Virus record (IMG/VR): IMGVR_UViG_3300027821_000007
Span: 27,504 to 91,503 of that record
DNA length: 64,000 nt
Strand: one strand, 5' to 3'
From: a virus
The notes under the pieces are model-generated. The model was not told the DNA's origin. It saw only the letters and a program-made list of their open reading frames with translations, and ran no database searches. Shown here in pieces: positions 875 to 60,064 of this stretch (positions are counted from its first letter, which is position 1; each line of letters opens with the position of its first letter). Made by a program: the position numbers and the translations under genes.

Positions 875-1013
875 GCTCTGCCTTACATACACCCTATAAT
901 CATGTCATTATCGACACTTAGTTTTGAGCGATATCCTTTTGTTGTGACCGTGGCGTCTGGTTTGCATGTCTCTTAGGCTGTCGCTTATGGCGACACAACC
1001 AAGGGGAGACACC

Positions 1014-6020: not shown

Positions 6021-6022
6021 CC

Positions 6023-6649: not shown

Positions 6650-6882
6650 CTGAAGAAGCTCTATTGGGTGCGGCCGATGACTACCCGGCCCTGGCGGCTT
6701 GGGTAAAAGAGAAGGCAGCTGAATTACACCAGTTGTGGCAGACCTCGCCCGACAAGTATCCGGCGGCGCTCGAGGCGACGCGGGCGGAATACCAGGCCAA
6801 GCGGCCGCCGGGCGACGGCCAGCCCAAGACCGTTGTCATCGACGAGATCATCCACATCAGCGCCCAGGGCAGCGCAGGGTGA
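6646..6882 (+). CDS. Small unrecognised protein between methyltransferase and glycosyltransferase
   Basis: The 78-residue product overlaps both neighbours (ATGA at its start, GTGA at its end), so the three genes should be co-translated. It is mostly helical (ALAAWVKEKAAELHQLW), then basic with a short beta segment TVVIDEIIHIS. No motif is recognised. Its position inside the modification cassette suggests an accessory role, but nothing in the sequence defines it. Confidence 0.6.
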   Translation: MTEEALLGAADDYPALAAWVKEKAAELHQLWQTSPDKYPAALEATRAEYQAKRPPGDGQPKTVVIDEIIHISAQGSAG

Positions 6883-7919
6883 GCCGGGCCCTCGTGGTTC
6901 GGCTCGGCGGCATCGGCGACAATCTCATCGCCGCTTCAGCGCTATCGCTGCTGGCCAAAAACCACGAGGTCGACGTCATGGCGCAGGCGCCGCAGGCCTG
7001 TGTTTTCGAGAATAACCCCTACGTGTCGCGGATTATCGTCAAGAAGGAAGGTGATATTCCGTCCGGTGGCAACGGCGAGCAATGGCATGCCTGGATGCGC
7101 GACCGCGGCAGCGAATACGACTGGTGGGTGAACCTGTCGCACAGCTGCGAAACCAAGCTGGCGCTGTTCAGGAATGAATGCGCGTTTTGGTGGCCAGATG
7201 CCTTCCGACGCAAGATGTGCGGTCACAACTACCTCGAATATGTCCACGACATTTGCGGCGTGGCGCACCAGTTCGATCCCGGTCCGCGCTTCTACCCGAC
7301 CGAGAAAGAGCAGATGCAGGCCGGGGACACGCTGGACAACGTACGTGACGGCGTGAACCGCCGGGTGGTCGGCATCGCCATCTCTGGTTCGCGCCTTGAT
7401 AAGATTTGGCCGTACTTGCCGATGCTGGTGGTGCGCCTGCTTGGCGAGCTCGAGGTCAGGGTAGTGCTGTTCGGGGCCGGCGAGCGCGATCACAAGATGG
7501 CGCAGCACGTCCAGGACTTCGTACAGCTCTGGCGTGGCTCGCTTGACGGACTGCACGCCGCCATTTCCCCCGATCCCAAGAACCCATCCTGGCCGATCCG
7601 CCGGGCGCTCGCCACCATTCAGCAATGCGACCTGGTGCTCACGCCCGACACCGGGCTGGCCTGGGCGGTGGCGATGGAGAAGATGCCGAAGGTGGTGGTG
7701 TTGTCGCACGCTTCGGAAGAGAACATCACCAAGCACTGGGTTAATACGACGTCCTTGCACGCCGATCCGGAGCGCGTGCCCTGCTATCCCTGTCACAGGC
7801 TGCATGACGACGCGAGCACCTGCGTCAAGGCTGCTGACGCCGAGGCGTCGAAGTGCATGGCGGACATCGCACTCGACACGGTTTTCACCGCCGTCCGCTC
7901 CAACCTGAAAGGACACTGA
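6879..7919 (+). CDS. Family 9 glycosyltransferase (heptosyltransferase-like)
   Basis: GTG 6879 overlaps the previous stop (GTGA) and puts the diagnostic N-terminal strand at the very start: SRALVVRLGGIGDNLIAAS. This is the GIGD-x-h signature of ADP-heptose:LPS heptosyltransferases. The 346-residue length is normal for the family. The C-terminal half has CDLVLTPDTGLAWAVA, matching the conserved D-x-G-x-x-H/W-A-A donor-site loop, and a late cluster of four Cys (CYPC, then two more). Enzymes of this family add heptose or related sugars to LPS core. In a phage this could remodel the host surface, for example to exclude superinfecting phages, or glycosylate a virion part. Both are inference. Confidence 0.85.
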   Translation: MSRALVVRLGGIGDNLIAASALSLLAKNHEVDVMAQAPQACVFENNPYVSRIIVKKEGDIPSGGNGEQWHAWMRDRGSEYDWWVNLSHSCETKLALFRNECAFWWPDAFRRKMCGHNYLEYVHDICGVAHQFDPGPRFYPTEKEQMQAGDTLDNVRDGVNRRVVGIAISGSRLDKIWPYLPMLVVRLLGELEVRVVLFGAGERDHKMAQHVQDFVQLWRGSLDGLHAAISPDPKNPSWPIRRALATIQQCDLVLTPDTGLAWAVAMEKMPKVVVLSHASEENITKHWVNTTSLHADPERVPCYPCHRLHDDASTCVKAADAEASKCMADIALDTVFTAVRSNLKGH

Positions 7920-7920
7920 T

Positions 7921-8319
7921 ATGGCTGGCATTACTCCATATGGCGTGAAAGCGATGCTCGATTACACGCTGGGCGGCGCGGCCGAGCCGGCGATCGCCGC
8001 CTGGGCGGTGGCGGTGGCGACCAGTACGGCGCCGACCACGGCGAGCATGTACGAGATCGCCACCGGCGAGGGCGCCAACCGGGCGACGGTGACGATGGGC
8101 GCCGCGGCCTCGCCGGCCGGGTCGTGCTCGAACGCCAACACGCTCAGCTACGGGCCGTTCAGCAGCGCGCGCACGATCTCGGGGATCTCGATCTGGGACA
8201 CGGCGGCAGTGACGGGCGGCAACGCGCTGTGGTTCGGCACGCTGTCGGTGGCGCGCACCCTGGCGATCGGCGACAGCCTGCTGATCAACCCGGGATCGCT
8301 GCTCATCACCCTCGCCTGA
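7921..8319 (+). CDS. Small beta-rich virion-type protein
   Basis: The 132-residue protein starts MAGITPYGVKAMLDYTLGG and has the pattern of a widespread phage protein group: N-terminal helix, Ala/Thr-rich strands, then SARTISGISIWDTAAVTGGNALWFGTL and a C-terminal strand SLLITLA. Members usually lie beside tail fibre or receptor-binding genes and are thought to be small virion attachments. It starts one base after the glycosyltransferase stop and shares TGATG with the next gene. The exact role is unknown. Confidence 0.65.
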   Translation: MAGITPYGVKAMLDYTLGGAAEPAIAAWAVAVATSTAPTTASMYEIATGEGANRATVTMGAAASPAGSCSNANTLSYGPFSSARTISGISIWDTAAVTGGNALWFGTLSVARTLAIGDSLLINPGSLLITLA

Positions 8320-8576
8320 TGTGGGTCCGGTCAGGTGAGTGCTGTCACTGCGGTGACTGTTGTATCGGCTCGCCGCCGGGGGAAGCCGCCCCCGTCGACG
8401 GCATGTGCCCCCGTCTGCGCCCTGGTCCGGAGGGCAAACGGCTATGTTCTGTGCATGATACCGATCACGCCTACTGGCAAGGTGCGTGCAGGCTCTGGCC
8501 AAGTCACCCAATACACGTTGAAGCCTATGCTCGGTGCACGTTTAGCTTTGCCTGGGTCGAGGAAGGACAGGGTTAA
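8319..8576 (+). CDS. Cys-rich metal-binding protein (YkgJ-like)
   Basis: The start at 8319 overlaps the previous stop. The 85-residue product has ECCHCGDCC near the N-terminus, followed by separate Cys at MCPRL, LCSVH, ACRLW and RCTFS. The CxxCGxCC core and spaced later Cys match the putative zinc- or iron-chelating domain of YkgJ-type proteins. Such small proteins occur in phage structural regions with no known role. Cys positions are clear in the sequence; the metal is inferred. Confidence 0.65.
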   Translation: MWVRSGECCHCGDCCIGSPPGEAAPVDGMCPRLRPGPEGKRLCSVHDTDHAYWQGACRLWPSHPIHVEAYARCTFSFAWVEEGQG

Positions 8577-9046
8577 TGCCCTCATATAGCGCCAACAATC
8601 GTCTGGGCGGCACCCAGCAGGTCATGACGACGACCTACAAGACGTGCCTGTCGGTGAGCGCACAGACGACGGGCCTGCGTCGGGCGCACATCTACGAACT
8701 GAACCTCGGGGTAGATGGCACGCCGGCCGACAACGTCGTGGTCTGGGATGTTTCACGCCAGACGACGGCGGGCACGGGCGGGGCCGCGGTTACACCGCTG
8801 GTGACCGAACCGGCCGATACCGCCTCGACGATGGTTGCCTACGCCAACCCGACTGCTGAGCCCGGTATCACGGCGACCAGTTCCATGCTGACCGTCGCGG
8901 TCAACCAGCGGGCGACCTATCGCTGGGTCGCGGTGCTCGGGCAGGAGTTGGTTATTCCGGCGACCAACCTGAACGGCATTGCCACGCGCGCGCTCAGTCC
9001 GGTCTACACCTCGACTTTCCTCGCCACTGTGATGTGGCTGGAATGA
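8576..9046 (+). CDS. Small phage structural protein, beta-sandwich type
   Basis: The start is embedded in the previous stop (TAATG). The 156-residue product is Thr/Ala/Val-rich, with RRAHIYELNLGVDGTPADN and RATYRWVAVLGQELV as recognisable blocks. The Y-E-L-x-h-G-x-x-G-T-P-x-D pattern is common in small virion proteins next to decoration or fibre genes. A beta-sandwich is likely. It belongs to the coupled gene chain from 7921 to 10045. Head decoration or fibre adaptor are equally possible. Confidence 0.65.
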   Translation: MPSYSANNRLGGTQQVMTTTYKTCLSVSAQTTGLRRAHIYELNLGVDGTPADNVVVWDVSRQTTAGTGGAAVTPLVTEPADTASTMVAYANPTAEPGITATSSMLTVAVNQRATYRWVAVLGQELVIPATNLNGIATRALSPVYTSTFLATVMWLE

Positions 9047-9049
9047 GTG

Positions 9050-9313
9050 ATGCGACGCCCGGGCGGTTACGCGGTCATTACCGGGCCTGACGGCACCAAG
9101 GAGCGGGACACTTTCACCTGCTTCCACTGCCAGCACATTGTCCACGTTCCGCCCAAGGCCGATCCGGCCGCGATTGGCGGCATGTGCTACCAGTGCATGC
9201 GATTGATTTGTCCGAACTGCGTTGGTTTCGGTGGCTGTACTCCGTTCGAGCGCAGGCTCGAGGCCATGGAGCGGCGGGCTGACGCGCTGCGGTCGTATGG
9301 GGTGGGAGAGTGA
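9050..9313 (+). CDS. Zinc-ribbon protein
   Basis: GTG 9047 and ATG 9050 are adjacent in-frame starts; the ATG is chosen. The product of about 87 residues has FTCFHCQHIVHV, then MCYQCMRLICPNC, a two-knuckle CxxC arrangement that should hold one zinc, or two with the third pair. The C-terminus is a charged helix (ERRLEAMERRADALR). Similar small zinc-ribbon proteins are frequent in phage late operons. Function is not established. Confidence 0.65.
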   Translation: MRRPGGYAVITGPDGTKERDTFTCFHCQHIVHVPPKADPAAIGGMCYQCMRLICPNCVGFGGCTPFERRLEAMERRADALRSYGVGE

Positions 9314-9314
9314 G

Positions 9315-9632
9315 ATGGAGTGGGTCAGTGGCAACGTCTTCATTCGCAAAATCCAGCCGACGAAAGGCGCTACATCAGGCGGCCATACCCACAATTTTGA
9401 TCACACAACGATTGTCTTTAAGGGCGCCGTGCATGTCTCGGCCACGCTGCCCAACGGCACGGTCATAGAGCGTGACTTCCATGCCCCGACGCACTTCCTT
9501 GTTCGTCGCGACGTGTTGCACGCGATCACCGCGCTAGAGGACGGCACTGAATACTGGTGCGTCTACAGCCACCGCACCCCGCAGGGTGAGGTGGTGCAGG
9601 AATGGGACGGGTGGCGCGAGGCCACCGTGTGA
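9315..9632 (+). CDS. Small cupin-fold protein
   Basis: The 105-residue product has cupin motif 1 in GGHTHNFDHTTIVFKGAVHV (His 24, His 26, His 30) and a motif 2-like segment around FLVRRDVLHAITALEDG with another His. The whole protein is little more than one beta barrel. Cupins bind a metal and act in sugar or small-molecule chemistry or as plain binding barrels. It lies 1.4 kb after the glycosyltransferase, so a sugar-related role is conceivable, but single-barrel cupins also occur as phage structural parts. It overlaps the next gene by TGATG. Confidence 0.7.
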   Translation: MEWVSGNVFIRKIQPTKGATSGGHTHNFDHTTIVFKGAVHVSATLPNGTVIERDFHAPTHFLVRRDVLHAITALEDGTEYWCVYSHRTPQGEVVQEWDGWREATV

Positions 9633-10045
9633 TGGCGGAAATGCTGCTCTGGATGCAGGACCGGCAAGGCGCTGACATCGAGCACACCAGCAAGCTGTCG
9701 CAGCGTGGCGACGTGATCGTGGTGCAGCCTGACGGCTGGGGCTGGAGCTTGGCCGAACAAACCGACCCATTTGTTGTGGTCGTGGTGCCCGATGCTACCG
9801 TGACCGATCTGGAATCATTCTTATCGCCCGAAATGCCGCAGCCGGGGAACGAGGACGCCCAATGGTGGGACACCACCAACACCCTGCAATTTCGCGGCTT
9901 CAGGGTGGACGTGGACAGCTACACCGGCGGCGTCTTGCGTTCCGGCGCCAATGTTCCCCTGGATGAAGTGCTGGCCTTGAAAGTACAGAAGCCCCCGCTC
10001 CCCGATCCGAAGGTGATCGGTGATAGCGGAAAGATAATTGGTTGA
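9632..10045 (+). CDS. Unrecognised phage protein before the giant fibre gene
   Basis: The 137-residue product starts at ATG 9632, overlapping the cupin stop, and its own stop overlaps the TTG of the giant gene (TTGA). It has a short beta-rich N-terminal half (GDVIVVQPDGWGWS, then PFVVVVVPDA) and a polar C-terminus. Proteins of this kind, with a DVI-x-V-x-PDGW-x-W pattern, are found in several phage structural clusters. A virion or assembly role is likely from context only. Confidence 0.6.
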   Translation: MAEMLLWMQDRQGADIEHTSKLSQRGDVIVVQPDGWGWSLAEQTDPFVVVVVPDATVTDLESFLSPEMPQPGNEDAQWWDTTNTLQFRGFRVDVDSYTGGVLRSGANVPLDEVLALKVQKPPLPDPKVIGDSGKIIG

Positions 10046-13000
10046 CCGTCACCAGTAACATCCACACCGGCCTGGCAGCCTGGAGCAACCACAGCTTCGC
10101 GCTAAACGAAGCATGCTCGAATGCCGGCAACGCCTACCGATGCACCACGGCAGGATCATCGACCGCTGCCCCTACCGGCACCGGAACCGGGATCAACAAC
10201 GGCGGCGTTGCCGTCTTCAAATGGCTCTCGACCTACGGGGCTTCGGACTATTCCACCATCGATGCGTGGGTCACGTCGATCCCCGGCACGCTGGCGCAGG
10301 CATACGAAGGCTTGATCTGGAACAACGGCGACATTGTTCGCACCACGTATGTGTCGATTACGGGGCACACGACAACCGCCGCCAACATCATCTCCCTGAA
10401 ATGCGCGCCGGGTGAAAGTTTCGCCGACAATCCGAACCGCGCCACCAACCCGCTAATCCCCAGCGCAAGCTATGGCGTGCAGATATCCCGATCAGGCAAC
10501 TATAGTTACAATATTATCCTCCAAGAGGATTATGGGCTTCTGGACGGCCTGCAGCTTGTTCGAGCGCCAGGCGCGATCCATCAGAATGCCAGTCTGGCCC
10601 TGGGAAAAAACGGCAGCAGCGGCACCACGACGGTCAGCCGGATGGTTGTGCGCGGGGAAAATTTCGAGCAGGCCAACAACGGCATCATCGGGGCTGGCGG
10701 AAGCTCATCGGTCGATCATGTCAACTGCGTGTTCATCGACGAATCGGTGGCAGGGTCAGGCAGCCCGATATGGAACGGCCAAAACAATAGCTGCAGCTTC
10801 ACCAACTGCGTGATGATCGCGCTGAACTCACAAGCCGGTTTCGATGCCATCCACCGCAACTACTCCGGCACCACGACGGTCACGAATTGCATAATCATGG
10901 GGTGGGGCGGCATCGGTAATGCCAACCTGACCTCGGGCGTCGCGCGCAACAACGTCGTGAACTGGACCAGCTATCCGTCAGGATGGACCGATACCGGGAC
11001 GCTGTTCAGCAAGACGGCGGCAAACCAGTTCGTAGGCATTGGCACCGACTTCAAACTGAAGGCGGGAGCCGACGCGCTCAACACGGGCTACACCGACACC
11101 GTCCACATCCCCAGCGCCACAGACATCTATGGCACGACGCGGCCGCAAGGCAGCGCGTGGGACGTCGGCCCCTATGAAACCCCTGCGTCGTCTGCGGCCT
11201 TCTTCGACTACATTGCGGAGGCTCGCCTTGTCCGCCAGCCGCCGCGCGCGCGACAGCCGCCTGCCCTGATAGCGCCGGTCTTGCGGCCGGTTCCCGGCGC
11301 GGGCTCGCCCAAGACCCTCTACATGCTGAACACGGCGGCCACCACGCCGGACTGGTTTGGCGTGATGCAGGACGGCGGCACCGCACCCACTGCCGCAGCT
11401 AGCGCGTTCGGATGGACGACTGCCAAAACTGCCACCACCACGCCTTTCTGGCGCGCTCGAATTGGCGCCACCGCCACCGCCACAGTTGCGTCCGCGACGA
11501 GCAATCTCGACTTTGCCGTTGATCCGAACGCCGGCACCGGCGCCACCATCACCACCTCGGGCGATGCGTTCCGTTCGCCCGTGCGCTATGCCGGTACGTT
11601 TGGCGCCGGCAACTGGACGCTCAATTTCGGCATGCGAACCCTCGCGGCAACGGTCGTGGGGAATATGCGCTGCCGGATCTGGGCCGGCCCCGCTTCGAAC
11701 GGCGTCAACGCGCGAGAGCTGACCAGCGGCGCTCTGACCGGCTCGACCGTGTCGATGATAGCGACTGCGACGACCTACACGTCCACCATCACCTGGAACG
11801 CGCCGACCATCATCCTGGATGGCGAATACCTGTTCTTCCAGGTCGAGTGGAACGAGACCACCGCGGGCACGTCCAATTCCTGCGCAGTGGTCTTTTACCA
11901 GTCCGCCTGTACCATAGCGACCGCGAACTGGTCGGCGGCCGCGGGGGTCACGGCGGCAACGACGATTGCCGGACAAGGGCAGTTCGACACGCCGGATAAT
12001 ATACCCCAGGTCTTCGCGATCGGCACGGCACAGCAAAAAACGGGCGGCGGCGCAACGCCGGTCACCTTAACGGCTAACGTGCCGGCCGGCTCCTTGATCG
12101 TAATATACAGCGCGTCAGTCACGGCTTCCGGCGGTGCCAGTTTCAACAGCCCCCCTACTGATTCGGCAGGGAATGTTTACACCCAGGTCCCCGGAAACTG
12201 GATCCTTACTACACCCTCATTCGGTGTAACCAGAGCTTACTGTCCCAACTGCCTGGCGCTAAGCGCCGGCCAAACCATTACGATCCCTATTGTTGGAACC
12301 GCTCTAACCGCCGCCATTTCGATCTTTTATGCGACCGGATTGCAACGGAGCGTGCTTCCGACGCCTCAAAGCTCATTTACTCAAAATACCGCCATTACTA
12401 ATCCGAGCCGGAATTTTAACCCTAGTTTGGCTTATGGCGTGTTGATAGGGGTGAGTGCCGTCGCCGGCGACGTTGTCGAGACGTTCACTAACGACACCAC
12501 CCATAATTGGACTACTCCGCCGCTTACTCGTGTCGGCAATACCGGCGGCGTCGCGAACACGAATGCCACTCTCAACGGAGCGTGGAAATACATTCAAGAC
12601 ACCACCCAGCAAACCTACTCTCCGACGTTGGGAACCGCTCGCGAGAATGTAATCGCAGTAGAAAACTGGGGTGCGGCCACCCAGGGCAGGCTCAGCCAGA
12701 ACCTGGCCGCCGCCGTTTCTATTGCCGGCGTCGGCGCCGTCGCGGTCGATGCGACGCGGATAGGCCCTGCTGTCTATACCGCCAATGCAACTCTTGCTGG
12801 CGTCAGCGGTCGGACCAATTCGATCCGCAACCCCCGCGCCGAGGGCGCTGTCGCTGGCACGCCAGGCACCGCTCCTACTTTCTGGAACGGATGGGGCGAC
12901 AATTTAGGCCTGACGTTCAGCATCATCGGTATCGGCACCGAAGACGGCATTCCCTACATTGATGTCCGCTACGCCGGCACGACTAACGTCGCTGGTTTCT

Positions 13001-16000
13001 TCACCACCGCTTACTTCGAGCCCACTGGGACGGCGGGCATTCCCAGCGGATTTGCCGACACGTGGTGGTTGAGTTTCTACCACCGCTTAGTTGGCGGCAG
13101 CACGGTCAACACCACCGGGGTCCAAGCTGGCTGGCGTGAATTTAATGCCGCCGGCACTGCGGTTGCGGTCCACAACAACGGCGCTCCCTTCGACCCGACC
13201 ACGGCGCCCCTCATAAGCCAACGTCAGTTGGTTGTCGGGCCCGGCCAAAATCTGGATCGCAATACCTACTATGTTTCTCCATTTTGGGGATTTGGTGTTA
13301 CCGGAAGTGGTGTTGCTATCGACATCACTTTTAGGATCGGCGCTCCGCAATTTGAACTAGGGAGTAACGTCTCCGGCCTGATCCTGCCGCCGATCGGCAC
13401 ACCGGGCATCTCGTCGCGTGCCATCGAGATCCGCGAGCGTGTCAGCGCGGTCGCGAAATCGACGATCGCGGGCCTCGGCGCCGTCGCGGCCGATGCGACA
13501 GTCGTGGCGGGCACGGCCGGAACCACCTACACCGGCGCCGTCACGATCGGCACGCTGCCGTCGTGGAACCCGCTGTCCCCGGACGCGCCGGCCACGACGC
13601 TGTTCACGAACAACAACCGCACGATCACGAAAACTGCCGGCGGTTTCGACGGCGCCAAGGGCAACTCCGTCGTCAGCAGCGGCAAGTTCTACGCCGAATT
13701 CACGCCGGGCAGCGGCTTCGACGGGAACAGTAGCTTTGGCGTCGCCACGACGGCCCTCACCACCTATTTCGAGGTCTATTCCCCGAGTACCCACTGCTGC
13801 ATAGCCGTACCCGGCATGGGAGTGCTGCTGAACGGCTCTAACACGGGAATACTGTTCTCCTGGTCGACCGCGTCGATCGCCATGGCGCTCGACATGGACA
13901 ATAAGCGGATTTGGTTCCGTCAGCTCCCGAGCGGCAACTGGAACGACAACGCCTCGAACAGTCCGACCACGCCGTCGACCGGCCTGGACATCAGCGGCCT
14001 GGTGCCGGTCACGCCGCTTTTCATAGTGACCCAACTGGGGGTGAATTCCGGTATCAGCGCCACGGTCGAGATGGGCCTGGGCTCCTTCGCCAACACTCCG
14101 CCCTCGGGTTACACGGTTTGGCCCTCCACCCCGGGCGGCACCGGCTACGTCAAGGCGTACGCCACGGTGCACACCGGCACGGTGACTGCTGCAGCCACCA
14201 TCGCCGGCGTCAGCGGCAGAACCAACTATATCCGTAACCCACGCGCGGAAGGCGCGGTTGCCGGAACGCCGGGCTCCATTCCGACCTACTGGAGACAGAT
14301 AGTAAACAACGCCGGTCTTACCCAGCAGATCGTCGGGACCGGGGTCGAGAATGGCATCGACTACATCGACGTTCGCTTCACCGGGTCCACGCCCGGCGGC
14401 GGTGAGATCACCATACAGCCTGCCCAGGATGGCGATGCGACACCGGTCCCAAGAACCTCGACCTGGGCGTCGTCGTTCTACATGCGCATTATCCCCGGCG
14501 ATGCGTCGTTCATCGATTACCTCTGGGTGTCGATGCAGAGCTACGCCAATAGCGGCGGGCAAGTCGATTGGATTACTGACACCTACTTCACCCCTTCGAC
14601 CCTGGTGCAACCAGGCGGATTGGGCACCCGCTACGTGTCGGTGGCGAACAACGCCACCACGACAGCCGGCGCCGACTACATGCGTCAATATATCTATGTC
14701 GATACCAAGATAAGCGGAGCCGCGCTTGACTTCACGCTGCGCATTGGTTGGCCACAACTGGAGAACGTCGAAACCACCGGCAATATCCTGCCGCCGGTCG
14801 GTGCTCCAGCGATAATCACACGCGCGATCGAGATCTACCCCAGGTTGCAGGCCGTTGCGGCAGTGACGATCGGCGGCGTCGGCACCATCGCGGTCGACGC
14901 GACCCGGGTGGCCGGTGCGGGCACCCAGTGGACCGGCGCCACGACGATCGTGGCTGCCGGCAACGTCGCGGTCAGTGCCGTTCAGCGCCAGGTTGCGGTC
15001 AGCACAATCGCTGCTGCCGGCAATGTTGCGGTCGATGCGCGGCGCATTGTCTATGCAGCCAGCACGAGCGCCGGCGTTGCTGTGGTCAGTGTTGCCGCGG
15101 TTCAACGCCAAGTTGCCGCCAGCACGATCGCCGGCCTGGGTGCGGTTAGCGATAGCGCTGTTCTGAGAGCGCGAACTGTCAGCACTATCGGTGGCTTGGG
15201 CAATGTCAGGGCCTGGGATTTTCACCCGGTCTACACAGCCTCGACGACTGCGGGCGTTAGCGGCCGGACCAACGTCATTCGCAATCCGCGCGGGGAAGGC
15301 GGAAGGGCGGGCGATCCCTCCACCAGTGAAGGATCGCCGCCGACCTACTGGACCGGGTGGGGAAACCCACCGTCCGGCCTGTTCGAAACTATTGCCGGCG
15401 TCGGCTACGAAGACGGCATTCCCTACATCGACATTCATCTTGTTGGTACGGTGGCGGGGAGCACGGCCTACTATCCGCATTATTTCGAAGACTACGACAC
15501 CATCCCGGTACCCCCGAGGAAAACCTGGTCAAGCAGCATCTACGTCAGACTGGTTGGAGGCAGCACCTCCAATGTTGCGTCTCTTGCCGTTGGCTGGACA
15601 GAATATAGTAGTAAATTTGCTGATATAATCGGAGATTTCGATACCGGGCAAGTGCCGACGTCGGCGCCTTTGTCAAGCCAAAGATACAGCTACGCTAATC
15701 CTACCACCGCTCTCGCCACCTACATTCGTCCGTATTGGAAAATATACTTTACCAGTCTGGGCGTTCCGGTTGACATCATCATTCGGATCGGTGGCCCGCA
15801 ACTCGAGTTGGGACCATCTGCTTCCGGTCTGATCCTGCCGCCGGTCGGTGTTCTCGCGGTCACGTCGCGCGCGATTGAAATCCGTGACAACGTCAAGATC
15901 CAGACGAACGTGGCTATGGGTGGAGTTGGCCGCGTCGTCTGCGAAGCGCTGGTCCGAAATCCGGCAGGACATATTGCCTACGATGCTTTTGCCACCATCG

Positions 16001-19000
16001 CTGCCACCACAACCTTCAGCCCAGTCAACGTTTTTCTTCGACAGTCGGCAGTCACTTCCATCGCCGGTCTTGGCGGCCAGGCGAACTACATCCGCAACCC
16101 ACGCTTCGAGGGCGCGGTCGCGGGCACTCCGGGCACCGTCCCGACCTACTTCTCGGACTGGAGCGCCGCAGCCGCGAGCGTGGGACTGAGCTTAACCATC
16201 CTCGGCACGGGTTACGAAGACGGCATCCCCTACATCGACGTCCGCATCTTCGGCACCACCGACGGGGTACACTACAGCTCGGACTTTTATTATTTCGAAA
16301 CCAACACAGCCATCCCGGCAGGCTACGACCAGGGATGGCTATTCAGCTTTTACCTCAAGCAACTGGTGGGCGAGGGCATATGGGGCCCCGTCAGCATGTT
16401 CTACATAGGCTGGGAAGAGCTCGACGAAAACGGAGTCCACTACAGCAATCATTCCGACGGAAAATCCGCTTTCACGGGACCGTTGTGGGATTGTAGGCAC
16501 GACATCTCGGACACCAACACCTTTTCAGATGTCCGCTTCATCAGGCCTTACTGGGGCTTTGGCCTCGACAGCGCCGCCGCCGTTCCCTTCGACAACACTC
16601 TACGAATTGGCGCCCCGCAACTCGAACTCGGCTACTCGGAGGACGGTCCCAGCGATCTGATCTTGCCGCCGGTCGGGGCGCCGGCCGTTTCGTTCCGCGC
16701 CATCCAGATCCGCGAACGCGTCACCATGGTCGCGGCAGTGACCATTGCCGGCGCGGGCAACGTCGCCGCGATACTGGCCCCCGACTGGGTGTCACCAGGT
16801 GCGCAGATCCACATCGACTTCATCGGAGGATCTCCACAGGGCCGAGCTTGGGTGCAAGGGGTCGGCGTCGTCGGCATCAACACCCTCGTCGGCAACGACC
16901 CGCTCGCGGACGCCGGCTGGACGACTACGGGCTACAACAGCGCCGAACTGACCCCCGACGGCTATCTGCCAACGATGTCCGCGGCTTTCATCGGCGAAGC
17001 CCGTAACTTACTGCTGACAGCTACGACGGTGCGAACCGTCCACACCCAAACCGGTCAAAATATTTCAGGATCATCTACCGGATGTGTGGTTCTTTCTGTT
17101 TTTTCGCCGTCCGGCGACAACGGCGTGGAAATTGACTTAACCCCCTTCGCCCCTGGCGCCTCTAGCCATCTCGACGTTTCTACATGGGGCGGTCCGGCCT
17201 ACGGCGACATCTTAGGCGCAGCCAATTCCGCCGTCGGCGCGATCAACGTGACGGCCTACACCGTCACCGCGAACCGTCTCGAAGCCGACATCAACGGCTA
17301 TTCCACCCCCATCGCTTTGACTTTGATCGATGCGGACCGTCCGACAGCGGACTCCTTCAAGGCGGCAATATTCGATCACAGACCAATCCAAGGCGGCTAT
17401 GTCGCCGTCCGGTCAATCCAATTCTATGCTCCCTTACCCACAGCGGCAGGCCTGATTCCCCTATCTGCTTTGCCGGCAACTATCGAACCTGTGGCGAGCA
17501 TGGCCGCGACGGGAAACGTTGCCGTCAGCGCACGGCAAGTTTCCTATGGCGCCACGACGATCGCGGGCGTCGCCAGCATCGCGGTCGACGCGACCAAGGT
17601 AGCCCCAGCAGGCACTGTATGGACCGCTGCCGTCACTATCGCGGCCATTGGCAACGTCGCGGCGTCTGCCGTCCAGCGTCAGGTCGCGGCCAGCACGAGT
17701 GCTGGCATTGGCAGCGTTGCGATCAATGCCATCAGGGCGCAGCCGGCCGCCAGCACGAGCGCCGGCCTGGGCGCAGTCGGCGTTGCCGCTATCCAGCGCA
17801 TGGTGGCGGCCAGCACGAGCGCCGGTGTCGGTACCGTCGGGGTAGCGGCCGGCAAGCTGATTTATGCTGCGACGACGATTGCGGGCGTCGGCAACGTCAG
17901 CGCCGCTGCCGTAACGCCGGAAGCTGCTGCCGCTGGCATCCCGGGTTTCGGCACCGTCAGCGTCACGGCGATACAACGGCAGTTCGCGACGATCGCGATC
18001 GCTGGCGTTGGCGCGTTCGGCGCGAATTCGGCCGGCTCGCAGCCGGGCAATGTCGCCATTGCGGGCCAGGCCGCGGTCAGCGTTGACGCGATCGCGCGCC
18101 GGTTCGCGACGATCCCGATTGCCGGACAGGGCAGCGTTGCGGTCGATGCCGGCAAGATCGTCTATGCCGCGGCGACGATCGGCGGCGTTGGCAGTGTCGC
18201 GGCCTCGGCCGGCAAGCTGATCTATGCCACGGCCAGCATCGCGGGCGTCGGCAACGTCACGGCTGATGCGCAGTTCGTCAGCGGGGCGGTTTCCTACACC
18301 GCCGCCACGACGATCGCTGGCGTCGGCAGCATCACGGCATCCGCCACCCTTAATCTACCGGCAGCAATCGCGATCGCGGCCACCGGCAGCGTCGCCGCCT
18401 CCGCCGTCCTGAACCTACCGGCCGCCACGACCATCGCGGGCCTTGGGGCGTTCGCCGCAAGTGCCGCAGCGGCCGGCGTGCAGACAGCGACCATCACGAT
18501 CGGCGGCCTGGGCAACGTCGCGGTCGACGCGCGGCGCAGCTCACCAGCCATAGCATCGATCGACAGCCAGGGCGCGGTCAGCGTCGCGGCCGCGCAGCTC
18601 CAATTCGCTGCCGTCAGCGTCGCCGGCGTCGGCAACGTCCTCGGCGCGGGGGGTGAAGCGCAACCCGCAGCCGCCTCGATCGTTGGCGTCGGCGCGGTCA
18701 GTGCTGCCGCCGGCGGTATACGCCCGGCGGCGGTGGCGACGGCCGCGCAGGGCGCGGTTAGTGCCGGCAGCGTCCTGACCCAAGTTACGGCGGTGGCGGT
18801 TGCTGGACTGGGCACAGTCAGCATCGCCGCCGGCGTACGCCAGTTCGCCACGGTCTCGATCGGCGGCGTCGGCACCCTCCTCGTCAACGCAATCCAGCAA
18901 GGGCGGCAGGAAGGCACCACCGCGATCGCGGCCTCGGCCACGGTCAGCATCTCCACCACCCAGCGCATGGTCGCGGCCAGCGCGATCGCGGCCCAGGCCA

Positions 19001-19425
19001 GCGTCAGCATCGATGCCGCGCGCATCACCTACGGCGCCACATCGATCGCGGCCCAGGGCAGCGTGGCCGTCGATGCCTACAAGGCGCAGTTCGCGACAAT
19101 CGCGATCGCCGGACAGGGCGCGGTCAACGTCAACGCTACGGCGTTGCGTGCTGCCGTCGTTACCATCGACGCTCAGGCCAGCGTCACCGTCAGGGGCAAC
19201 ACCCGCCAGGTCGCAGCCACGCAGATCGACGGCGTCGGCGGCGGCGGCTTCACCGCCTATGCGATGTGCCCGGTTTCGGCGATCATCGTCGGCCAGGGCA
19301 ACGTCCAGATTGGTTCGGCACGAACCATCTTCATGGGCGTTGACATTGCTGGTGCGGGTCACGTCGCCGTTTCGGCCAGAACCCAGGCCCTCGCCAGCCA
19401 AGCGCGCGTCATGATGATGGCGTGA
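10042..19425 (+). CDS. Giant modular repeat protein, probable virion adhesin or fibre (3127 aa)
   Basis: Translation starts at a TTG overlapping the previous stop. By eye the protein reads: a right-handed beta-helix (residues 1-380, closing with a RPQGSAWDVGPYE cap); two beta-sandwich domains (about 420-640 and 650-880); a 20-residue repeat; a carbohydrate-binding-like module (about 920-1135); a SPRY-like domain (about 1170-1365, GKFYAEFTPGSGFDGNSSFG); three more copies of the carbohydrate-binding-like module; a LamG-like domain (about 2250-2480); and then about 31 tandem 20-residue repeats to the C-terminus. No signal peptide or membrane anchor is seen. Sugar-binding modules on a repetitive shaft suggest receptor or polysaccharide binding. 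Its place between terminase and portal rather than after the tail genes is odd. Reading frame and repeats are clear; the adhesin role is inferred. Confidence 0.85.
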   Translation: MTVTSNIHTGLAAWSNHSFALNEACSNAGNAYRCTTAGSSTAAPTGTGTGINNGGVAVFKWLSTYGASDYSTIDAWVTSIPGTLAQAYEGLIWNNGDIVRTTYVSITGHTTTAANIISLKCAPGESFADNPNRATNPLIPSASYGVQISRSGNYSYNIILQEDYGLLDGLQLVRAPGAIHQNASLALGKNGSSGTTTVSRMVVRGENFEQANNGIIGAGGSSSVDHVNCVFIDESVAGSGSPIWNGQNNSCSFTNCVMIALNSQAGFDAIHRNYSGTTTVTNCIIMGWGGIGNANLTSGVARNNVVNWTSYPSGWTDTGTLFSKTAANQFVGIGTDFKLKAGADALNTGYTDTVHIPSATDIYGTTRPQGSAWDVGPYETPASSAAFFDYIAEARLVRQPPRARQPPALIAPVLRPVPGAGSPKTLYMLNTAATTPDWFGVMQDGGTAPTAAASAFGWTTAKTATTTPFWRARIGATATATVASATSNLDFAVDPNAGTGATITTSGDAFRSPVRYAGTFGAGNWTLNFGMRTLAATVVGNMRCRIWAGPASNGVNARELTSGALTGSTVSMIATATTYTSTITWNAPTIILDGEYLFFQVEWNETTAGTSNSCAVVFYQSACTIATANWSAAAGVTAATTIAGQGQFDTPDNIPQVFAIGTAQQKTGGGATPVTLTANVPAGSLIVIYSASVTASGGASFNSPPTDSAGNVYTQVPGNWILTTPSFGVTRAYCPNCLALSAGQTITIPIVGTALTAAISIFYATGLQRSVLPTPQSSFTQNTAITNPSRNFNPSLAYGVLIGVSAVAGDVVETFTNDTTHNWTTPPLTRVGNTGGVANTNATLNGAWKYIQDTTQQTYSPTLGTARENVIAVENWGAATQGRLSQNLAAAVSIAGVGAVAVDATRIGPAVYTANATLAGVSGRTNSIRNPRAEGAVAGTPGTAPTFWNGWGDNLGLTFSIIGIGTEDGIPYIDVRYAGTTNVAGFFTTAYFEPTGTAGIPSGFADTWWLSFYHRLVGGSTVNTTGVQAGWREFNAAGTAVAVHNNGAPFDPTTAPLISQRQLVVGPGQNLDRNTYYVSPFWGFGVTGSGVAIDITFRIGAPQFELGSNVSGLILPPIGTPGISSRAIEIRERVSAVAKSTIAGLGAVAADATVVAGTAGTTYTGAVTIGTLPSWNPLSPDAPATTLFTNNNRTITKTAGGFDGAKGNSVVSSGKFYAEFTPGSGFDGNSSFGVATTALTTYFEVYSPSTHCCIAVPGMGVLLNGSNTGILFSWSTASIAMALDMDNKRIWFRQLPSGNWNDNASNSPTTPSTGLDISGLVPVTPLFIVTQLGVNSGISATVEMGLGSFANTPPSGYTVWPSTPGGTGYVKAYATVHTGTVTAAATIAGVSGRTNYIRNPRAEGAVAGTPGSIPTYWRQIVNNAGLTQQIVGTGVENGIDYIDVRFTGSTPGGGEITIQPAQDGDATPVPRTSTWASSFYMRIIPGDASFIDYLWVSMQSYANSGGQVDWITDTYFTPSTLVQPGGLGTRYVSVANNATTTAGADYMRQYIYVDTKISGAALDFTLRIGWPQLENVETTGNILPPVGAPAIITRAIEIYPRLQAVAAVTIGGVGTIAVDATRVAGAGTQWTGATTIVAAGNVAVSAVQRQVAVSTIAAAGNVAVDARRIVYAASTSAGVAVVSVAAVQRQVAASTIAGLGAVSDSAVLRARTVSTIGGLGNVRAWDFHPVYTASTTAGVSGRTNVIRNPRGEGGRAGDPSTSEGSPPTYWTGWGNPPSGLFETIAGVGYEDGIPYIDIHLVGTVAGSTAYYPHYFEDYDTIPVPPRKTWSSSIYVRLVGGSTSNVASLAVGWTEYSSKFADIIGDFDTGQVPTSAPLSSQRYSYANPTTALATYIRPYWKIYFTSLGVPVDIIIRIGGPQLELGPSASGLILPPVGVLAVTSRAIEIRDNVKIQTNVAMGGVGRVVCEALVRNPAGHIAYDAFATIAATTTFSPVNVFLRQSAVTSIAGLGGQANYIRNPRFEGAVAGTPGTVPTYFSDWSAAAASVGLSLTILGTGYEDGIPYIDVRIFGTTDGVHYSSDFYYFETNTAIPAGYDQGWLFSFYLKQLVGEGIWGPVSMFYIGWEELDENGVHYSNHSDGKSAFTGPLWDCRHDISDTNTFSDVRFIRPYWGFGLDSAAAVPFDNTLRIGAPQLELGYSEDGPSDLILPPVGAPAVSFRAIQIRERVTMVAAVTIAGAGNVAAILAPDWVSPGAQIHIDFIGGSPQGRAWVQGVGVVGINTLVGNDPLADAGWTTTGYNSAELTPDGYLPTMSAAFIGEARNLLLTATTVRTVHTQTGQNISGSSTGCVVLSVFSPSGDNGVEIDLTPFAPGASSHLDVSTWGGPAYGDILGAANSAVGAINVTAYTVTANRLEADINGYSTPIALTLIDADRPTADSFKAAIFDHRPIQGGYVAVRSIQFYAPLPTAAGLIPLSALPATIEPVASMAATGNVAVSARQVSYGATTIAGVASIAVDATKVAPAGTVWTAAVTIAAIGNVAASAVQRQVAASTSAGIGSVAINAIRAQPAASTSAGLGAVGVAAIQRMVAASTSAGVGTVGVAAGKLIYAATTIAGVGNVSAAAVTPEAAAAGIPGFGTVSVTAIQRQFATIAIAGVGAFGANSAGSQPGNVAIAGQAAVSVDAIARRFATIPIAGQGSVAVDAGKIVYAAATIGGVGSVAASAGKLIYATASIAGVGNVTADAQFVSGAVSYTAATTIAGVGSITASATLNLPAAIAIAATGSVAASAVLNLPAATTIAGLGAFAASAAAAGVQTATITIGGLGNVAVDARRSSPAIASIDSQGAVSVAAAQLQFAAVSVAGVGNVLGAGGEAQPAAASIVGVGAVSAAAGGIRPAAVATAAQGAVSAGSVLTQVTAVAVAGLGTVSIAAGVRQFATVSIGGVGTLLVNAIQQGRQEGTTAIAASATVSISTTQRMVAASAIAAQASVSIDAARITYGATSIAAQGSVAVDAYKAQFATIAIAGQGAVNVNATALRAAVVTIDAQASVTVRGNTRQVAATQIDGVGGGGFTAYAMCPVSAIIVGQGNVQIGSARTIFMGVDIAGAGHVAVSARTQALASQARVMMMA
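12806..13440 (+). repeat. Carbohydrate-binding-like module, copy 1
   Basis: This encodes about 210 residues beginning GRTNSIRNPRAEGAVAGTPG and ending ILPPIGTPGISSRAIEIRER. Internal landmarks are GTEDGIPYIDVRYAGT and DITFRIGAPQFELG. The same landmarks recur in order in three more copies. The fold looks like a jelly-roll sugar-binding module. The ends of the module match the positions where 20-residue repeats begin, as if modules and spacers had been shuffled as units. Confidence 0.8.
14212..14860 (+). repeat. Carbohydrate-binding-like module, copy 2
   Basis: Starts GRTNYIRNPRAEGAVAGTPG and ends ILPPVGAPAIITRAIEIYPR. It is the most divergent copy internally (GVENGIDYIDVRFTGST instead of the EDGIPYIDV form) but keeps the TLRIGWPQLE segment. 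It follows the SPRY-like domain directly. Confidence 0.8.
15259..15890 (+). repeat. Carbohydrate-binding-like module, copy 3
   Basis: Starts GRTNVIRNPRGEGGRAGDPS, contains GYEDGIPYIDIHLVGT and RIGGPQLELGPSASGLILPP, and ends near TSRAIEIRDNV. It has a short insertion after the first 20 residues. It is preceded by five 20-residue spacer repeats. Confidence 0.8.
16075..16725 (+). repeat. Carbohydrate-binding-like module, copy 4
   Basis: Starts GQANYIRNPRFEGAVAGTPG, contains GYEDGIPYIDVRIFGTTDG and RIGAPQLELG, and ends FRAIQIRERV. The central part is longer than in copy 1 and is rich in aromatic residues. It is followed by one spacer repeat and the LamG-like domain. Confidence 0.8.
17491..19422 (+). 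repeat. About 31 tandem 20-residue (60-bp) repeats
   Basis: The last 644 residues of the giant protein read as about 31 units with consensus A-A-x-T-I-A-G-V-G-x-V-x-V-x-A-x-x-x-x-x. Most units are exactly 20 residues (60 bp); a few carry 1-5 extra residues. Related single units also occur inside the protein (for example near 12720, 13450, 14870-15200 and 15900). Strong alternation of small and hydrophobic residues with a central Gly suggests one beta turn per repeat, as in a solenoid or fibrous shaft. At DNA level units share many identical short blocks, so slippage and recombination are likely. Confidence 0.85.
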
Positions 19426-20461: not shown

Positions 20462-21010
20462 ATGAGCAAAAACAACACTCCGGCTGATCCGGTTCCACCC
20501 GATGCGGAATGGCGCGTTGTGGAATGGAACGACAATTATGGTGTGAGTGAGTATGGACACCTTCGTCGTGAGCGCGACGGATCAAATAGCAAGGCCGGCA
20601 AGATCATTAAGCCCCGATGGAACGGACGGTATTTTCAATACGGGCTTCAGCGAAATTGTGAAAAGCGATACGTCACTGCGCATGTTTTGGTTTGTGAAGC
20701 CTTTCATGGACCGCGACCAAGTCGCTTTCATCAGACGGCTCATTGGGATGGAAACAGTCGCAACTGCCACAAAGGCAATCTTCGATGGGCAACGGCGCTC
20801 GAAAATTCTGATGATCGCGATCGGCACGGCCGCATACCACGAGGAACTGATCATCCCTTGTACCGAAGCAACCTCACGGAACAGAAGATCCGAGAAATCT
20901 GCTCATCTACTGACAGCCAACGAACGCTTGCGCGCAGGTATGGCGTTGGACAACCAATGATCTGGTCAATCCGCGCTGGAAGAATTTGGAAGCACGTGCC
21001 TCGGTGTTGA
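20462..21010 (+). CDS. NUMOD4-HNH homing endonuclease
   Basis: The 182-residue product has a NUMOD4 domain at about residues 15-55 (EWRVVEWNDNYGVSEYGHLR). An HNH_3-type domain follows at about 70-125: VTAHVLVCEAFHG, then HWDGNSRNCHKGNLRWAT. A C-terminal helix-turn-helix (SQRTLARRYGVGQPMIWSI) would contact DNA. This is a classic freestanding homing endonuclease that cuts a cognate site and spreads by repair. The gene is visibly less GC-rich than its neighbours and its 3' end overlaps the start of the next HNH gene, both signs of recent insertion. The active-site His and Asn are present. Confidence 0.9.
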   Translation: MSKNNTPADPVPPDAEWRVVEWNDNYGVSEYGHLRRERDGSNSKAGKIIKPRWNGRYFQYGLQRNCEKRYVTAHVLVCEAFHGPRPSRFHQTAHWDGNSRNCHKGNLRWATALENSDDRDRHGRIPRGTDHPLYRSNLTEQKIREICSSTDSQRTLARRYGVGQPMIWSIRAGRIWKHVPRC

Positions 21011-21661: not shown

Positions 21662-23440
21662 GTGGCGCTCACGCCTAGTTCCTGGAACATGCCGCACCGG
21701 CCGATGAACCTGCCGGGAATGAACCGCGACAACGCCCCATCAACCCCGGTCGAGGCGGGACTGATACAGCGGATTTCCGGGCAGATGCGAACCTGGTTGG
21801 GGATGGGGCAGGCAGGGTCTACGGAACTGCCGTTCTTTCCGCCGGGCCGGCCGCTCGATCCCGTGGCGCCCGGGGCGGGTGGTCGGCGTTTCGATTACCC
21901 CACTTCGTACAATACTATCTATACGCCGCGCTCCTTCGAGCCGATCAACTTCGAAAGCCTGCGCGCCATCGCCGACCCGGCCGTGGGCGGCTACGACCTG
22001 ATCCGCCTCGCCATCGAAACCCGCAAGGACCAGATCGGCAACCTCAAGAAGTCGATCATGCCGAAGAAGCAGGGCGATCAGGCGTCGCGGCCCAAGACCG
22101 ACGACCGCTGTCGCCAGCTCGAGGCCATTTTCGAGCGCCCCGACGGTGAGATCGGCTGGCAGCAATGGGTGTCGCAACTCGTCGAGGAACACCTGGTCAT
22201 CGATGCCGCGACCATCGTGCGCAAGAAGAACCGCGGCGGCGAGACGGTCGGCTTTGAGCTCATCGACGGCTCGATGATCAAGCCGCTGCTCAACTACGAC
22301 GGCCGCACCCCGCTCGACGGGCCAGCCTACCAACAGGTCATGAAGGGCATCGTCGCGGCCGAGTTCTCCAAGGAGGACATGATCTACGCGCCGCGCAACC
22401 GGCGGGTGAACAAGGTCTACGGCTGCAGCCCGGTTGAGCAGGTGCTGGTCACCGCGAATATCGGCCTGCGGCGTCAGGCGCAGCAACTCGCCTACTTCAC
22501 CGACGGCACCATCCCCGACGCGGTGTGGCAGGTGCCTCCGACCTGGACCACGCAACAGATCGCCGAGTTCCAAGCCTATTGGGACACCATCGTCAACGAC
22601 GCGGTAACCCGGCGGAAGATGCGCTTTGCCCCGGGCGGCGTGACCCCGGTGATGACCCGCTCGCCCGAGGCGCTGGTCGACCAGTTTGACGAGTGGCTGG
22701 CGCGTATCATCGCCTTCTGCTTCTCGCTGCCGCCGACCCCGTTCGTTCGCCTGGTCAACCGCGCGACCGGCGAGACGATGTACGAACAGGCCCTGCAGGA
22801 GGGCCTCGCCCCACTTATGACGTGGATAAAGAGTCTCCTCGACTACATCATTGCCGATTGGTTCGGGTTTCCGGACATCGAGATGGTGTGGGACGATTTC
22901 AGAAAAGTCGACCCCGCGGAGAAGGAACAGCGCGACGTCGTCCTGGTCAACGAGGGCGCGATCTCGCTCGACGACATCCGCACCGAGCGCGGCATGGAAC
23001 CGCTCGGCGTGCCGCCCTTCGTGCGCGGCATCGGCCCGATGGGCTTCCTCTCGATCGAGGGCATCAAGAAGATCATCGCGAACGGCTGGGACGTCACCGG
23101 CCTGCCGCAGCCGACGATGCCGGGCCAGGAGATGGCCGGACTGGGCGGCGCGCCCGGCGAGGGCGACCCATCGGTCGACGAACTCGTGCAGGGCCTGCCG
23201 CCGGAGATCATCGAGGCGCTGGGGATCGCGCCGCAAACTCCGGCAAACGGCGCCGAAACTCCGGCAAATGGCCAAATGACGGGCGCCATGGTGGGCGCTG
23301 AAGGTCAAATGGTGGACGCTGCCGGATCGAATGTCGTGCCTTTCCATGAACATCCCGGCGTTAAAGCAGCCTTGGCGCACGGCGAGCAGATGGCGCACAA
23401 ACATGCGGCGCAGTTGAGGTCGGCAAAGCGCGGCAAATGA
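21662..23440 (+). CDS. Portal protein
   Basis: The 592-residue protein forms the dodecameric DNA gate of the capsid vertex. Residues 100-460 have the Phage_portal pattern: VGGYDLIRLAIETRKDQIGNL, ENVI-type segment EEHLVIDAATIVRKK, YAPRNRRVNKVYGCSPVEQVL, and the late helix GEGAISLDDIRTERGMEPLG-like region. The first 90 residues are Pro-rich and the last 100 are Gly/Ala/Gln-rich, both likely flexible. The GTG start at 21662 follows the previous stop directly. It overlaps the next very large gene by ATGA. Length and gene position (head of the capsid operon) agree with the call. Confidence 0.9.
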   Translation: MALTPSSWNMPHRPMNLPGMNRDNAPSTPVEAGLIQRISGQMRTWLGMGQAGSTELPFFPPGRPLDPVAPGAGGRRFDYPTSYNTIYTPRSFEPINFESLRAIADPAVGGYDLIRLAIETRKDQIGNLKKSIMPKKQGDQASRPKTDDRCRQLEAIFERPDGEIGWQQWVSQLVEEHLVIDAATIVRKKNRGGETVGFELIDGSMIKPLLNYDGRTPLDGPAYQQVMKGIVAAEFSKEDMIYAPRNRRVNKVYGCSPVEQVLVTANIGLRRQAQQLAYFTDGTIPDAVWQVPPTWTTQQIAEFQAYWDTIVNDAVTRRKMRFAPGGVTPVMTRSPEALVDQFDEWLARIIAFCFSLPPTPFVRLVNRATGETMYEQALQEGLAPLMTWIKSLLDYIIADWFGFPDIEMVWDDFRKVDPAEKEQRDVVLVNEGAISLDDIRTERGMEPLGVPPFVRGIGPMGFLSIEGIKKIIANGWDVTGLPQPTMPGQEMAGLGGAPGEGDPSVDELVQGLPPEIIEALGIAPQTPANGAETPANGQMTGAMVGAEGQMVDAAGSNVVPFHEHPGVKAALAHGEQMAHKHAAQLRSAKRGK

Positions 23441-60061: not shown

Positions 60062-60064
60062 ACC

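What the first reader, a model, noticed from the sequence alone, without database searches (positions are those of the whole stretch)
10042..19425. A 3127-residue modular adhesin located between terminase and portal
One TTG-initiated gene of 9.4 kb joins a beta-helix, several beta-sandwich domains, four copies of a carbohydrate-binding-like module, a SPRY-like domain, a LamG-like domain and a long repeat shaft. Fibre genes are usually found after the tail genes. A protein this size in this position may be a separate head or neck fibre or a secreted matrix-binding protein rather than a tail fibre.
Basis: partly seen in the sequence, partly recalled or inferred. Interest (0 to 1): 0.75.

Follow-up and report, generated by a model that had tools for sequence, protein, structure and literature searches.

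The report
Giant rope for a bead-chain fibre
A very large virus gene appears to encode a long string of about forty identical-length docking segments, with sugar-binding domains spliced in between, that would thread small bead proteins into a flexible fibre on the virus particle, which makes a poorly understood kind of phage fibre readable from sequence.

Summary
The 3127-aa ORF is real: open throughout, found again in a second IMG/VR contig, and its TTG start overlaps the upstream stop codon in the same way as in a 52%-identical homologue. It lies between TerL and portal. A gp80-like bead gene (PF23140, bead of phage GP4 fibre I; PDB 8jou) lies 1.7 kb upstream. Across phages, the gene just downstream of such a bead has the same period: 68 of 78 IMG/VR loci, against 0 of 67 upstream genes. 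Rope lengths differ by multiples of 20. In a contig whose bead is identical to GP4's, the rope has 11 units; 8jou holds 10 bead chains. Phage Slicko01 has a second giant of this type beside a bead, matching the region that a 2026 paper on LSH1 could not model. In L050 the rope is fused to tail-tip protein J. Best reading: a 'rope' threading bead proteins into a chain, with an N-terminal beta-helix-like domain and four CBM4/22-like domains inserted. Neck or tail attachment is undecided; virion presence is unproven here.

The parts
10042..19425 (+). 3127-aa rope protein with inserted and N-terminal payload domains
   Evidence: ORF; period 20, z=123
10042..11190 (+). N-terminal beta-helix-like payload domain, aa 1-383, ending in a choice-of-anchor-Q domain
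   Evidence: NF041518 5.6e-7; homologues L193-L202; AF2 pLDDT 37 only
11308..12681 (+). two beta-rich-looking regions of unknown family, aa ~423-880; limits read by eye
   Evidence: sequence; no Pfam match for aa ~407-663
12694..12753 (+). rope unit, aa 885-904
12790..13467 (+). CBM-like module 1, aa 917-1142
   Evidence: AF2 and PDB folds
13438..13497 (+). rope unit, aa 1133-1152
   Evidence: only phrog_10080 (unknown function) 2.5e-5; no Pfam SPRY match; not confirmed
14194..14871 (+). CBM-like module 2, aa 1385-1610
14842..15219 (+). six rope units, aa 1601-1726
15244..15918 (+). CBM-like module 3, aa 1735-1959
16054..16746 (+). CBM-like module 4, aa 2005-2235
   Evidence: no Pfam match; not confirmed
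17473..19377 (+). main rope array, 20-residue units, aa 2478-3112
7921..8319 (+). gp80-like bead protein, 132 aa
   Evidence: PF23140 1.2e-19; PDB 8jou_a 2.8e-6; phrog_240 head protein
6735..7919 (+). glycosyltransferase-9-like gene next to the bead, also next to the bead in L050
   Evidence: PF01075 5.9e-4, below the curated cut-off; L050 36% identity
5900..6649 (+). methyltransferase-like gene (start uncertain); an alike gene lies upstream of GT9 and bead in L050
   Evidence: sequence read by eye; no family search
8576..9046 (+). 156-aa protein of unknown family between bead and giant
   Evidence: ORF; no family
9602..10045 (+). 147-aa gene overlapping the giant's start; a related gene also precedes the N-terminal homologue in L194
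5475..6020 (+). 181-aa protein, possible fibre-tip type; related to the end of long PHROG proteins and to a 1452-aa protein in L194
   Evidence: phrog_9625 4.5e-5; 43.7% identity in L194

Best explanation
The gene encodes the rope of a bead-chain fibre like fibre I of podophage GP4, enlarged to a giant. Each 20-residue unit is a docking segment for a small bead protein, most likely the gp80-like product of 7921-8319. About 39-46 units would thread a few dozen beads into a long flexible chain. An N-terminal beta-helix-like domain and four CBM4/22-like modules sit at the end of the rope and between its units, so that one chain carries several glycan-binding sites. Shown here: the ORF, the 20-residue period, the bead gene nearby, the general coupling of beads to genes with a 20-residue period, quantised rope lengths, and the CBM fold of the module. 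Inferred: that beads bind the repeats, that the count of units sets the count of beads, that the domains bind host glycans, and that the fibre is in the virion. Attachment at the neck (as in GP4) or tail is open.
For: (1) Exact 20-residue period, z=123 at d=20; among window ORFs listed with z>5 no other has 20, 40 or 60 as best offset except the hub 60065-63664 (z 10.3, tied with offset 8 at 10.1). (2) Bead gene 1.7 kb upstream: PF23140 1.2e-19, 8jou 2.8e-6. (3) 23 annotated phage loci with a bead: best period 20 or 40 with z>4 in 11 of 19 testable genes directly downstream, 1 of 19 upstream, 1 of 161 others. (4) 80 further IMG/VR bead loci: 68 of 78 downstream genes, 0 of 67 upstream, 10 of 152 others. 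(5) Among ropes with similar ends, 142 of 152 length differences over 6 residues lie within 2 of a multiple of 20. (6) Contig L164, whose bead is identical to 8jou: the next gene, 325 aa, has 11 units (12 shuffles give 2-6), and 8jou has 10 bead chains. (7) An HMM of the giant's own repeat finds 12 of 98 ropes at E<0.01, 0 of 957 other ORFs (the one further hit is the giant's own copy in L063) and 0 of 98 shuffled ropes. (8) Slicko01, prompted by PMC13243795: one of 126 ORFs tested has period 40/20 (z 107/69); it is 1843 aa with long N-terminal domains, and a bead-HMM hit (9.4e-7) lies one small gene away. (9) L050: MTase-like gene, GT9-like gene and bead together with three rope-bearing ORFs, one fused to tail-tip J and carrying two modules. 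(10) Module fold CBM4-2, Z 13.3.
Against: The giant is not directly downstream of the bead; three or more genes lie between. The giant's repeat HMM gives no hit to the GP4-like rope, BcepMigl or several other ropes, so a shared period could in part be convergence. Unit counts depend on the finder (39, 46), and the GP4-like rope gives 11 units for 10 chains. By a looser criterion 7 of 161 and 16 of 152 other genes also pass z>4 at 20 or 40, and some bead loci show no clear period in the +1 gene (phiM5 z 3.2 and ctXG6705 z 3.6 at 20; Venkman, DB2, Domovoi and ctvy9321 negative). Loci are related to each other, so the counts are not independent. No bead-rope complex was modelled, and no virion data exist for this phage.
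Confidence: 0.74

Rival explanations
1. A tail-tip or side fibre whose 20-residue repeats are a self-folding beta-solenoid shaft that needs no beads; the bead gene nearby makes another structure.
For: The repeat weakly resembles the adhesin 3pet (E 0.012) and MEP401's rope resembles DUF2807 (E 0.094, below cut-off). PMC13243795 reports that AlphaFold draws such stretches as a beta helix, with poor scores. In L050 a rope is fused to tail-tip J.
Against: It does not explain why genes with this period follow the bead gene in 68 of 78 loci and precede it in 0 of 67. The LSH1 authors themselves doubt their beta-helix model.
Confidence: 0.15
2. Rope and bead fibre as proposed, but placed at the tail tip or along the tail, not at the head or neck (a variant of the best explanation, so its weight is not exclusive of it).
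For: J-rope fusion in L050; beads among minor tail protein genes in mycobacteriophages and beside baseplate J-like genes in Lietuvens and PVJ1.
Against: The gene lies with TerL and portal, far from TMP and hub (51983-63664); phrog_240 is labelled head protein (a label, not a test).
Confidence: 0.45
3. A secreted or cell-surface matrix-binding protein expressed from the phage, not a virion part.
For: CBM-like modules; two PEP-CTERM genes at 966-2512.
Against: Rope homologues in Lessievirus are annotated as virion structural proteins, and the phiM5 bead is noted as detected in the particle proteome. No secretion signal was looked for with a predictor.
Confidence: 0.05
4. The long frame is an assembly artefact of a repetitive locus.
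For: Repeats can collapse or expand in short-read assembly, so the unit number may be off.
Against: Open frame with coding-like GC3 throughout and the same sequence in a second contig; 1843-aa and 881-aa ropes exist elsewhere.
Confidence: 0.03

Closest known systems
Fibre I of Ralstonia podophage GP4 (gp80 beads linked by an elongated rope protein; PDB 8jou; Zheng 2023, J Mol Biol, not read, recalled)
   Same: gp80-like bead by sequence; rope-type protein with 20-residue units in the same cluster; the gene after the identical bead in L164 has 11 such units
   Different: Here the rope protein is about ten times longer, holds four inserted CBM-like modules and an N-terminal beta-helix-like domain, and the phage has siphovirus-type tail genes; no HMM hit between the two repeats
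Extra structural module gp34-gp36 of Alishewanella phage LSH1 (PMC13243795; passages and sections 16 and 25 read) and Slicko01 WGH49683
   Same: Beta-helix payload at the N-terminus of a large protein, a long poorly modelled stretch, and a gp80-like bead gene nearby (Slicko01 repeat and bead). LSH1 itself is not in the collections, so its repeat was not tested
   Different: Payload domains differ; CBM-like modules were not searched for in Slicko01; the LSH1 authors propose that gp36 attaches the gp35 fibril to the virion and do not identify a 20-residue repeat
Bead-chain neck fibre of Anabaena myophage A-1(L), gp80-gp82 (PMC10966104; abstract, passages and section 8 read)
   Same: A chain of small beads with a larger distal part, leaving the neck as five fibres
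   Different: A-1(L) beads (gp81) are described as trimers joined head to tail, with no rope; homology to the bead family here was not tested
CBM4/CBM22 carbohydrate-binding modules and phage tail fibres with the same fold (2y6j, 4xuo, 9b45)
   Same: Beta-sandwich fold of the module
   Different: 7-18% identity over the listed matches; no ligand tested

Membership tests
GP4-type bead-and-rope fibre (fibre I) | gp80 homologue (PF23140) in the gene cluster | tested here: met
   1.2e-19, cut-off passed (71.3 vs 27 bits); 8jou_a 2.8e-6
GP4-type bead-and-rope fibre (fibre I) | Rope-type protein with 20-residue units encoded in the same cluster | tested here: met
   z=123 at d=20; 1.7 kb downstream of the bead, not the very next gene
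GP4-type bead-and-rope fibre (fibre I) | Sequence homology of the repeat to rope proteins of bead loci | tested here: inconclusive
   12 of 98 ropes at E<0.01, 0 of 957 other ORFs, but no hit to the GP4-like rope
GP4-type bead-and-rope fibre (fibre I) | Beads physically strung on the rope in the virion | not testable with these tools
   needs protein or virions
GP4-type bead-and-rope fibre (fibre I) | Attachment at the tail vertex or neck with five-fold symmetry | not testable with these tools
   Location in GP4 recalled only
A-1(L) neck fibre | Trimeric beads joined head to tail, no rope | not tested
   Described in PMC10966104 section 8
CBM4/CBM22-like module | Beta-sandwich jelly-roll fold | tested here: met
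   2y6j Z 13.3, rmsd 2.8, 158 aligned; 4xuo_A E 2.5e-4
CBM4/CBM22-like module | Glycan binding | not testable with these tools
   needs protein
Choice-of-anchor-Q domain protein | Match to NF041518 above cut-off | tested here: met
   29.7 vs 25 bits, aa 335-380
SPRY domain | Match to the Pfam SPRY model | tested here: inconclusive
   No match at E<=1; AF2 pLDDT mostly <50
Lambda J central tail fibre | J core domains | tested here: not met
   No PHROG or Pfam match for the giant; the J core is present in L050's rope ORF instead

The most novel reading that the evidence does not exclude
The rope is a ruler written in the gene: each 20-residue unit docks one bead subunit, so the number of units sets fibre length, and here CBM-like adhesins hang between beads like charms on a bracelet, giving a multivalent glycan-binding chain of some forty beads. 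The same rule would let bead number and fibre length be read from sequence in hundreds of phages.
Probability: 0.45. Interest if true: 0.78.

Novelty: new variant of a known kind. Interest (0 to 1): 0.64.

Why it matters
Bead-chain fibres are known from a few structures. The rope sequence behind the beads has no general Pfam or PHROG family (three ropes scanned and six ropes; only the GP4-like and BcepIL02 ropes share one PHROG over their length), and a 2026 paper on LSH1 says of the corresponding stretch that its authors do not know why it cannot be modelled. An exact 20-residue unit, tied to the bead gene in most loci tested, makes ropes recognisable, gives testable fibre lengths, and shows that giant ropes carry glycan-binding-type payloads and can be fused to the tail tip.

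Tried and rejected
Even-number rule (two repeats per bead dimer): counts of 6, 8 and 10 units looked preferred, but only 39 of 152 length differences fall near a multiple of 40, against 142 near a multiple of 20; rejected. Bead-rope gene fusion as direct proof: the one long bead ORF, L189, has a bead only at its end and no 20-residue period; its N-terminal part reads like an out-of-frame extension; not used. One search did show that the bead ORF of cta39025 is two beads in tandem. AF2 of the N-terminal domain was too poor for a fold search. SPRY fold: of the two SPRY homologues put into A6, L204 aligned to the module instead and L206 spread over both, so that part of the model is uninformative. 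Direct homology of the GP4-like rope to the giant by HMM: no hit. PDB search with the GP4-like rope: none; chains of unknown residues are not in that file. Host of the phage by TerL in genome contigs: none. GP4 by accession: not held. Paper searches for the bead, rope and repeat found no paper describing a 20-residue repeat in such ropes; the GP4 paper itself is not in the library, so it may state this. Fold searches listed no SPRY or LamG match, which says little, as those parts were modelled badly.
Full report
WHAT IS THERE. The ORF at 10042-19425 is open for 3127 codons from a TTG. The start overlaps the stop of the 147-aa gene before it (TTGA), and in L194, whose homologue is 52% identical over the N-terminal part, the homologous pair overlaps as ATGA. 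GC3 stays at 0.66-0.83 along the frame, and a second IMG/VR contig carries the same ORF. TerL (3248-4750) and portal (21662-23440) lie on either side. Downstream genes include head-tail connector proteins, tail tube, tape measure, glycoside hydrolase, phiJL001 gp84-like and Rcc01698-like hub proteins: a siphovirus-type particle. The window is the last 64 kb of a 91.5-kb viral contig.

THE REPEAT. A profile scan finds 39 units, mostly spaced by exactly 20 residues within arrays; most are in aa 2478-3112, the others stand before, between and after the folded modules. A second finder, which also counts degenerate flanking units, gives 46. By self-comparison at all offsets from 8 to 64 the giant has z=123 at 20, 85 at 40 and 66 at 60. 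The four ~230-aa modules and the other folded stretches are therefore insertions in, or extensions of, one repetitive chain.

THE BEAD GENE. At 7921-8319 lies a 132-aa protein of Pfam family PF23140, 'Podophage GP4 fiber I protein gp80' (1.2e-19), matching PDB 8jou (2.8e-6). From memory of the abstract of Zheng 2023 (not held in the library), GP4 fibre I consists of five gp80 dimers linked by an elongated rope protein. PMC13243795 (passages and sections 16 and 25 read; [quoted passage not shown]

TEST OF A BEAD-ROPE RULE. I took 23 annotated phage loci with a bead and measured periodicity in every typed CDS of at least 100 aa. Best offset 20 or 40 with z>4: 11 of 19 genes directly downstream, 1 of 19 directly upstream (a mycobacteriophage with the order reversed), 1 of 161 others. 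With the looser criterion of z>4 at 20 or 40, the counts are 13 of 19, 1 of 19 and 7 of 161. Four of the 23 loci had no downstream CDS of 100 aa in my list; in one of them, Atu_ph08, an unannotated ORF there has period 20 (z 9.7). A further 80 IMG/VR loci, chosen only by bead similarity, gave 68 of 78 downstream, 0 of 67 upstream and 10 of 152 others (looser: 73 of 78, 0 of 67, 16 of 152). Two loci had no downstream ORF. The loci are related, so these are not independent events.

ROPE LENGTHS. Among 128 different complete downstream genes (of 170), 374 pairs share similar ends. Of the 152 pairs differing by more than 6 residues, 142 differ by a multiple of 20 within 2 residues; only 39 by a multiple of 40. 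Single units are gained and lost. An earlier impression that even counts are preferred did not hold.

GP4. L164, from a 61,129-bp contig, encodes a bead identical over 140 aa to 8jou, so it is GP4 or a near twin. The next gene, 325 aa, shows 11 units; 12 shuffles give 2-6. The PDB entry has 10 chains of the bead. One unit per bead subunit is the simplest reading; 10 against 11 is close, not exact. The rope is not in the PDB by sequence.

A CHECK PROMPTED BY THE LITERATURE. The LSH1 paper reports a three-gene virion module with a beta-helix payload protein, gp34, whose C-terminal part AlphaFold could not model; the authors write that they do not know why and that Slicko01 and Slickus01 have related proteins. 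LSH1 is not in the collections. In Slicko01, of 126 ORFs tested, one has period 40/20 (z 107/69): an 1843-aa protein, and a bead-HMM hit (9.4e-7; PF23140 only 0.0036, below its cut-off; phrog_240 1.7e-9) is one small gene away. This is a second giant rope with long N-terminal domains. That it is the protein the LSH1 authors mean is my inference from their description.

RELATIVES OF THE WHOLE CASSETTE. L050 has a methyltransferase-like gene, a GT9-like gene and a bead in the same order as the window, plus ropes of 515 and 881 aa, and a 2146-aa ORF whose residues 255-1455 match central tail fibre J (1.9e-228), with rope units and two modules in its C-terminal part. So ropes can also hang from the tail tip. 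L018 (46-47% identical TerL and portal) has, in the same TerL-portal interval, a 1451-aa frame with four modules, whose best offset is 56, with 20 second at z 10.4, and a 1724-aa spike-like protein. The N-terminal domain exists without a rope: L194 has it twice in tandem in a 718-aa protein, preceded by the 147-aa partner gene, and L193 (81-85%) ends soon after it. The giant is thus a mosaic of an N-terminal payload and a loaded rope.

THE MODULES. Copy 1 folds with pLDDT mostly above 90 as a beta-sandwich. The best PDB matches are CBM4-2 (Z 13.3, 2.8 A, 158 residues) and CBM22 (Foldseek 2.5e-4), with phage tail fibres and tailspikes in the same lists. Single copies occur in many phage proteins, including gene 49 of Azospirillum phage Cd, annotated just before a tail fibre gene. 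Sugar binding is inferred.

HOW IT LIKELY WORKS. Bead proteins bind successive 20-residue units of the rope and make a chain; the CBM-like modules and the N-terminal domain are displayed between and at the end of the beads, giving many weak glycan contacts at a distance from the particle. Shown: the sequence period, its link to beads, quantised lengths, the CBM fold. Inferred: binding, stoichiometry, glycan target, virion location. The giant's repeat HMM links it directly to 12 of 98 ropes at E<0.01, with 0 of 957 other ORFs apart from its own copy, but not to the GP4-like rope.

KNOWN OR NEW. The kind of fibre is known (GP4). The giant form with inserted CBM-like modules, the 20-residue unit as a general signature of ropes, and the J-rope fusion were not found in print by the searches listed under Tried and rejected; the GP4 paper was not available and may describe its own rope's repeats.

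Noticed in passing
window 966-1745 and 1742-2512: Two tandem genes each ending in a PEP-CTERM motif (1.9e-7 and 5.1e-7), unusual for a phage genome.
   Followed up: no
window 5900-7919; L050:11780-13856: A methyltransferase-like gene and a GT9 heptosyltransferase-like gene stand next to the bead gene in two distant phages; they may modify the fibre or the host glycan.
   Followed up: partly
L083:4773-5327 (Agrobacterium phage Atu_ph08): A rope ORF with period 20 is missing from the annotation, which has an antisense gene over part of it.
   Followed up: partly
L073:4501-5283 (phage cta39025): Bead ORF that is two bead domains in tandem, as if a dimer had been fused.
   Followed up: partly
L286:7570-13101 minus strand (Slicko01, WGH49683): 1843-aa giant rope annotated as hypothetical protein, one small gene from a bead-like gene.
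   Followed up: yes
window 33620-43278: Two consecutive very long ORFs (1570 and 1649 aa) in the head region; the first starts with a head-protease-like domain (phrog_9427 1e-5), the second has no PHROG match.
   Followed up: no
window 20462-21010: HNH endonuclease gene between the giant and the portal, a possible agent of insertion of the cassette.
   Followed up: no
window 9222-9632: Cupin-like small protein (by eye) upstream of the 147-aa gene; a related gene precedes the N-terminal homologue in L195.
   Followed up: no
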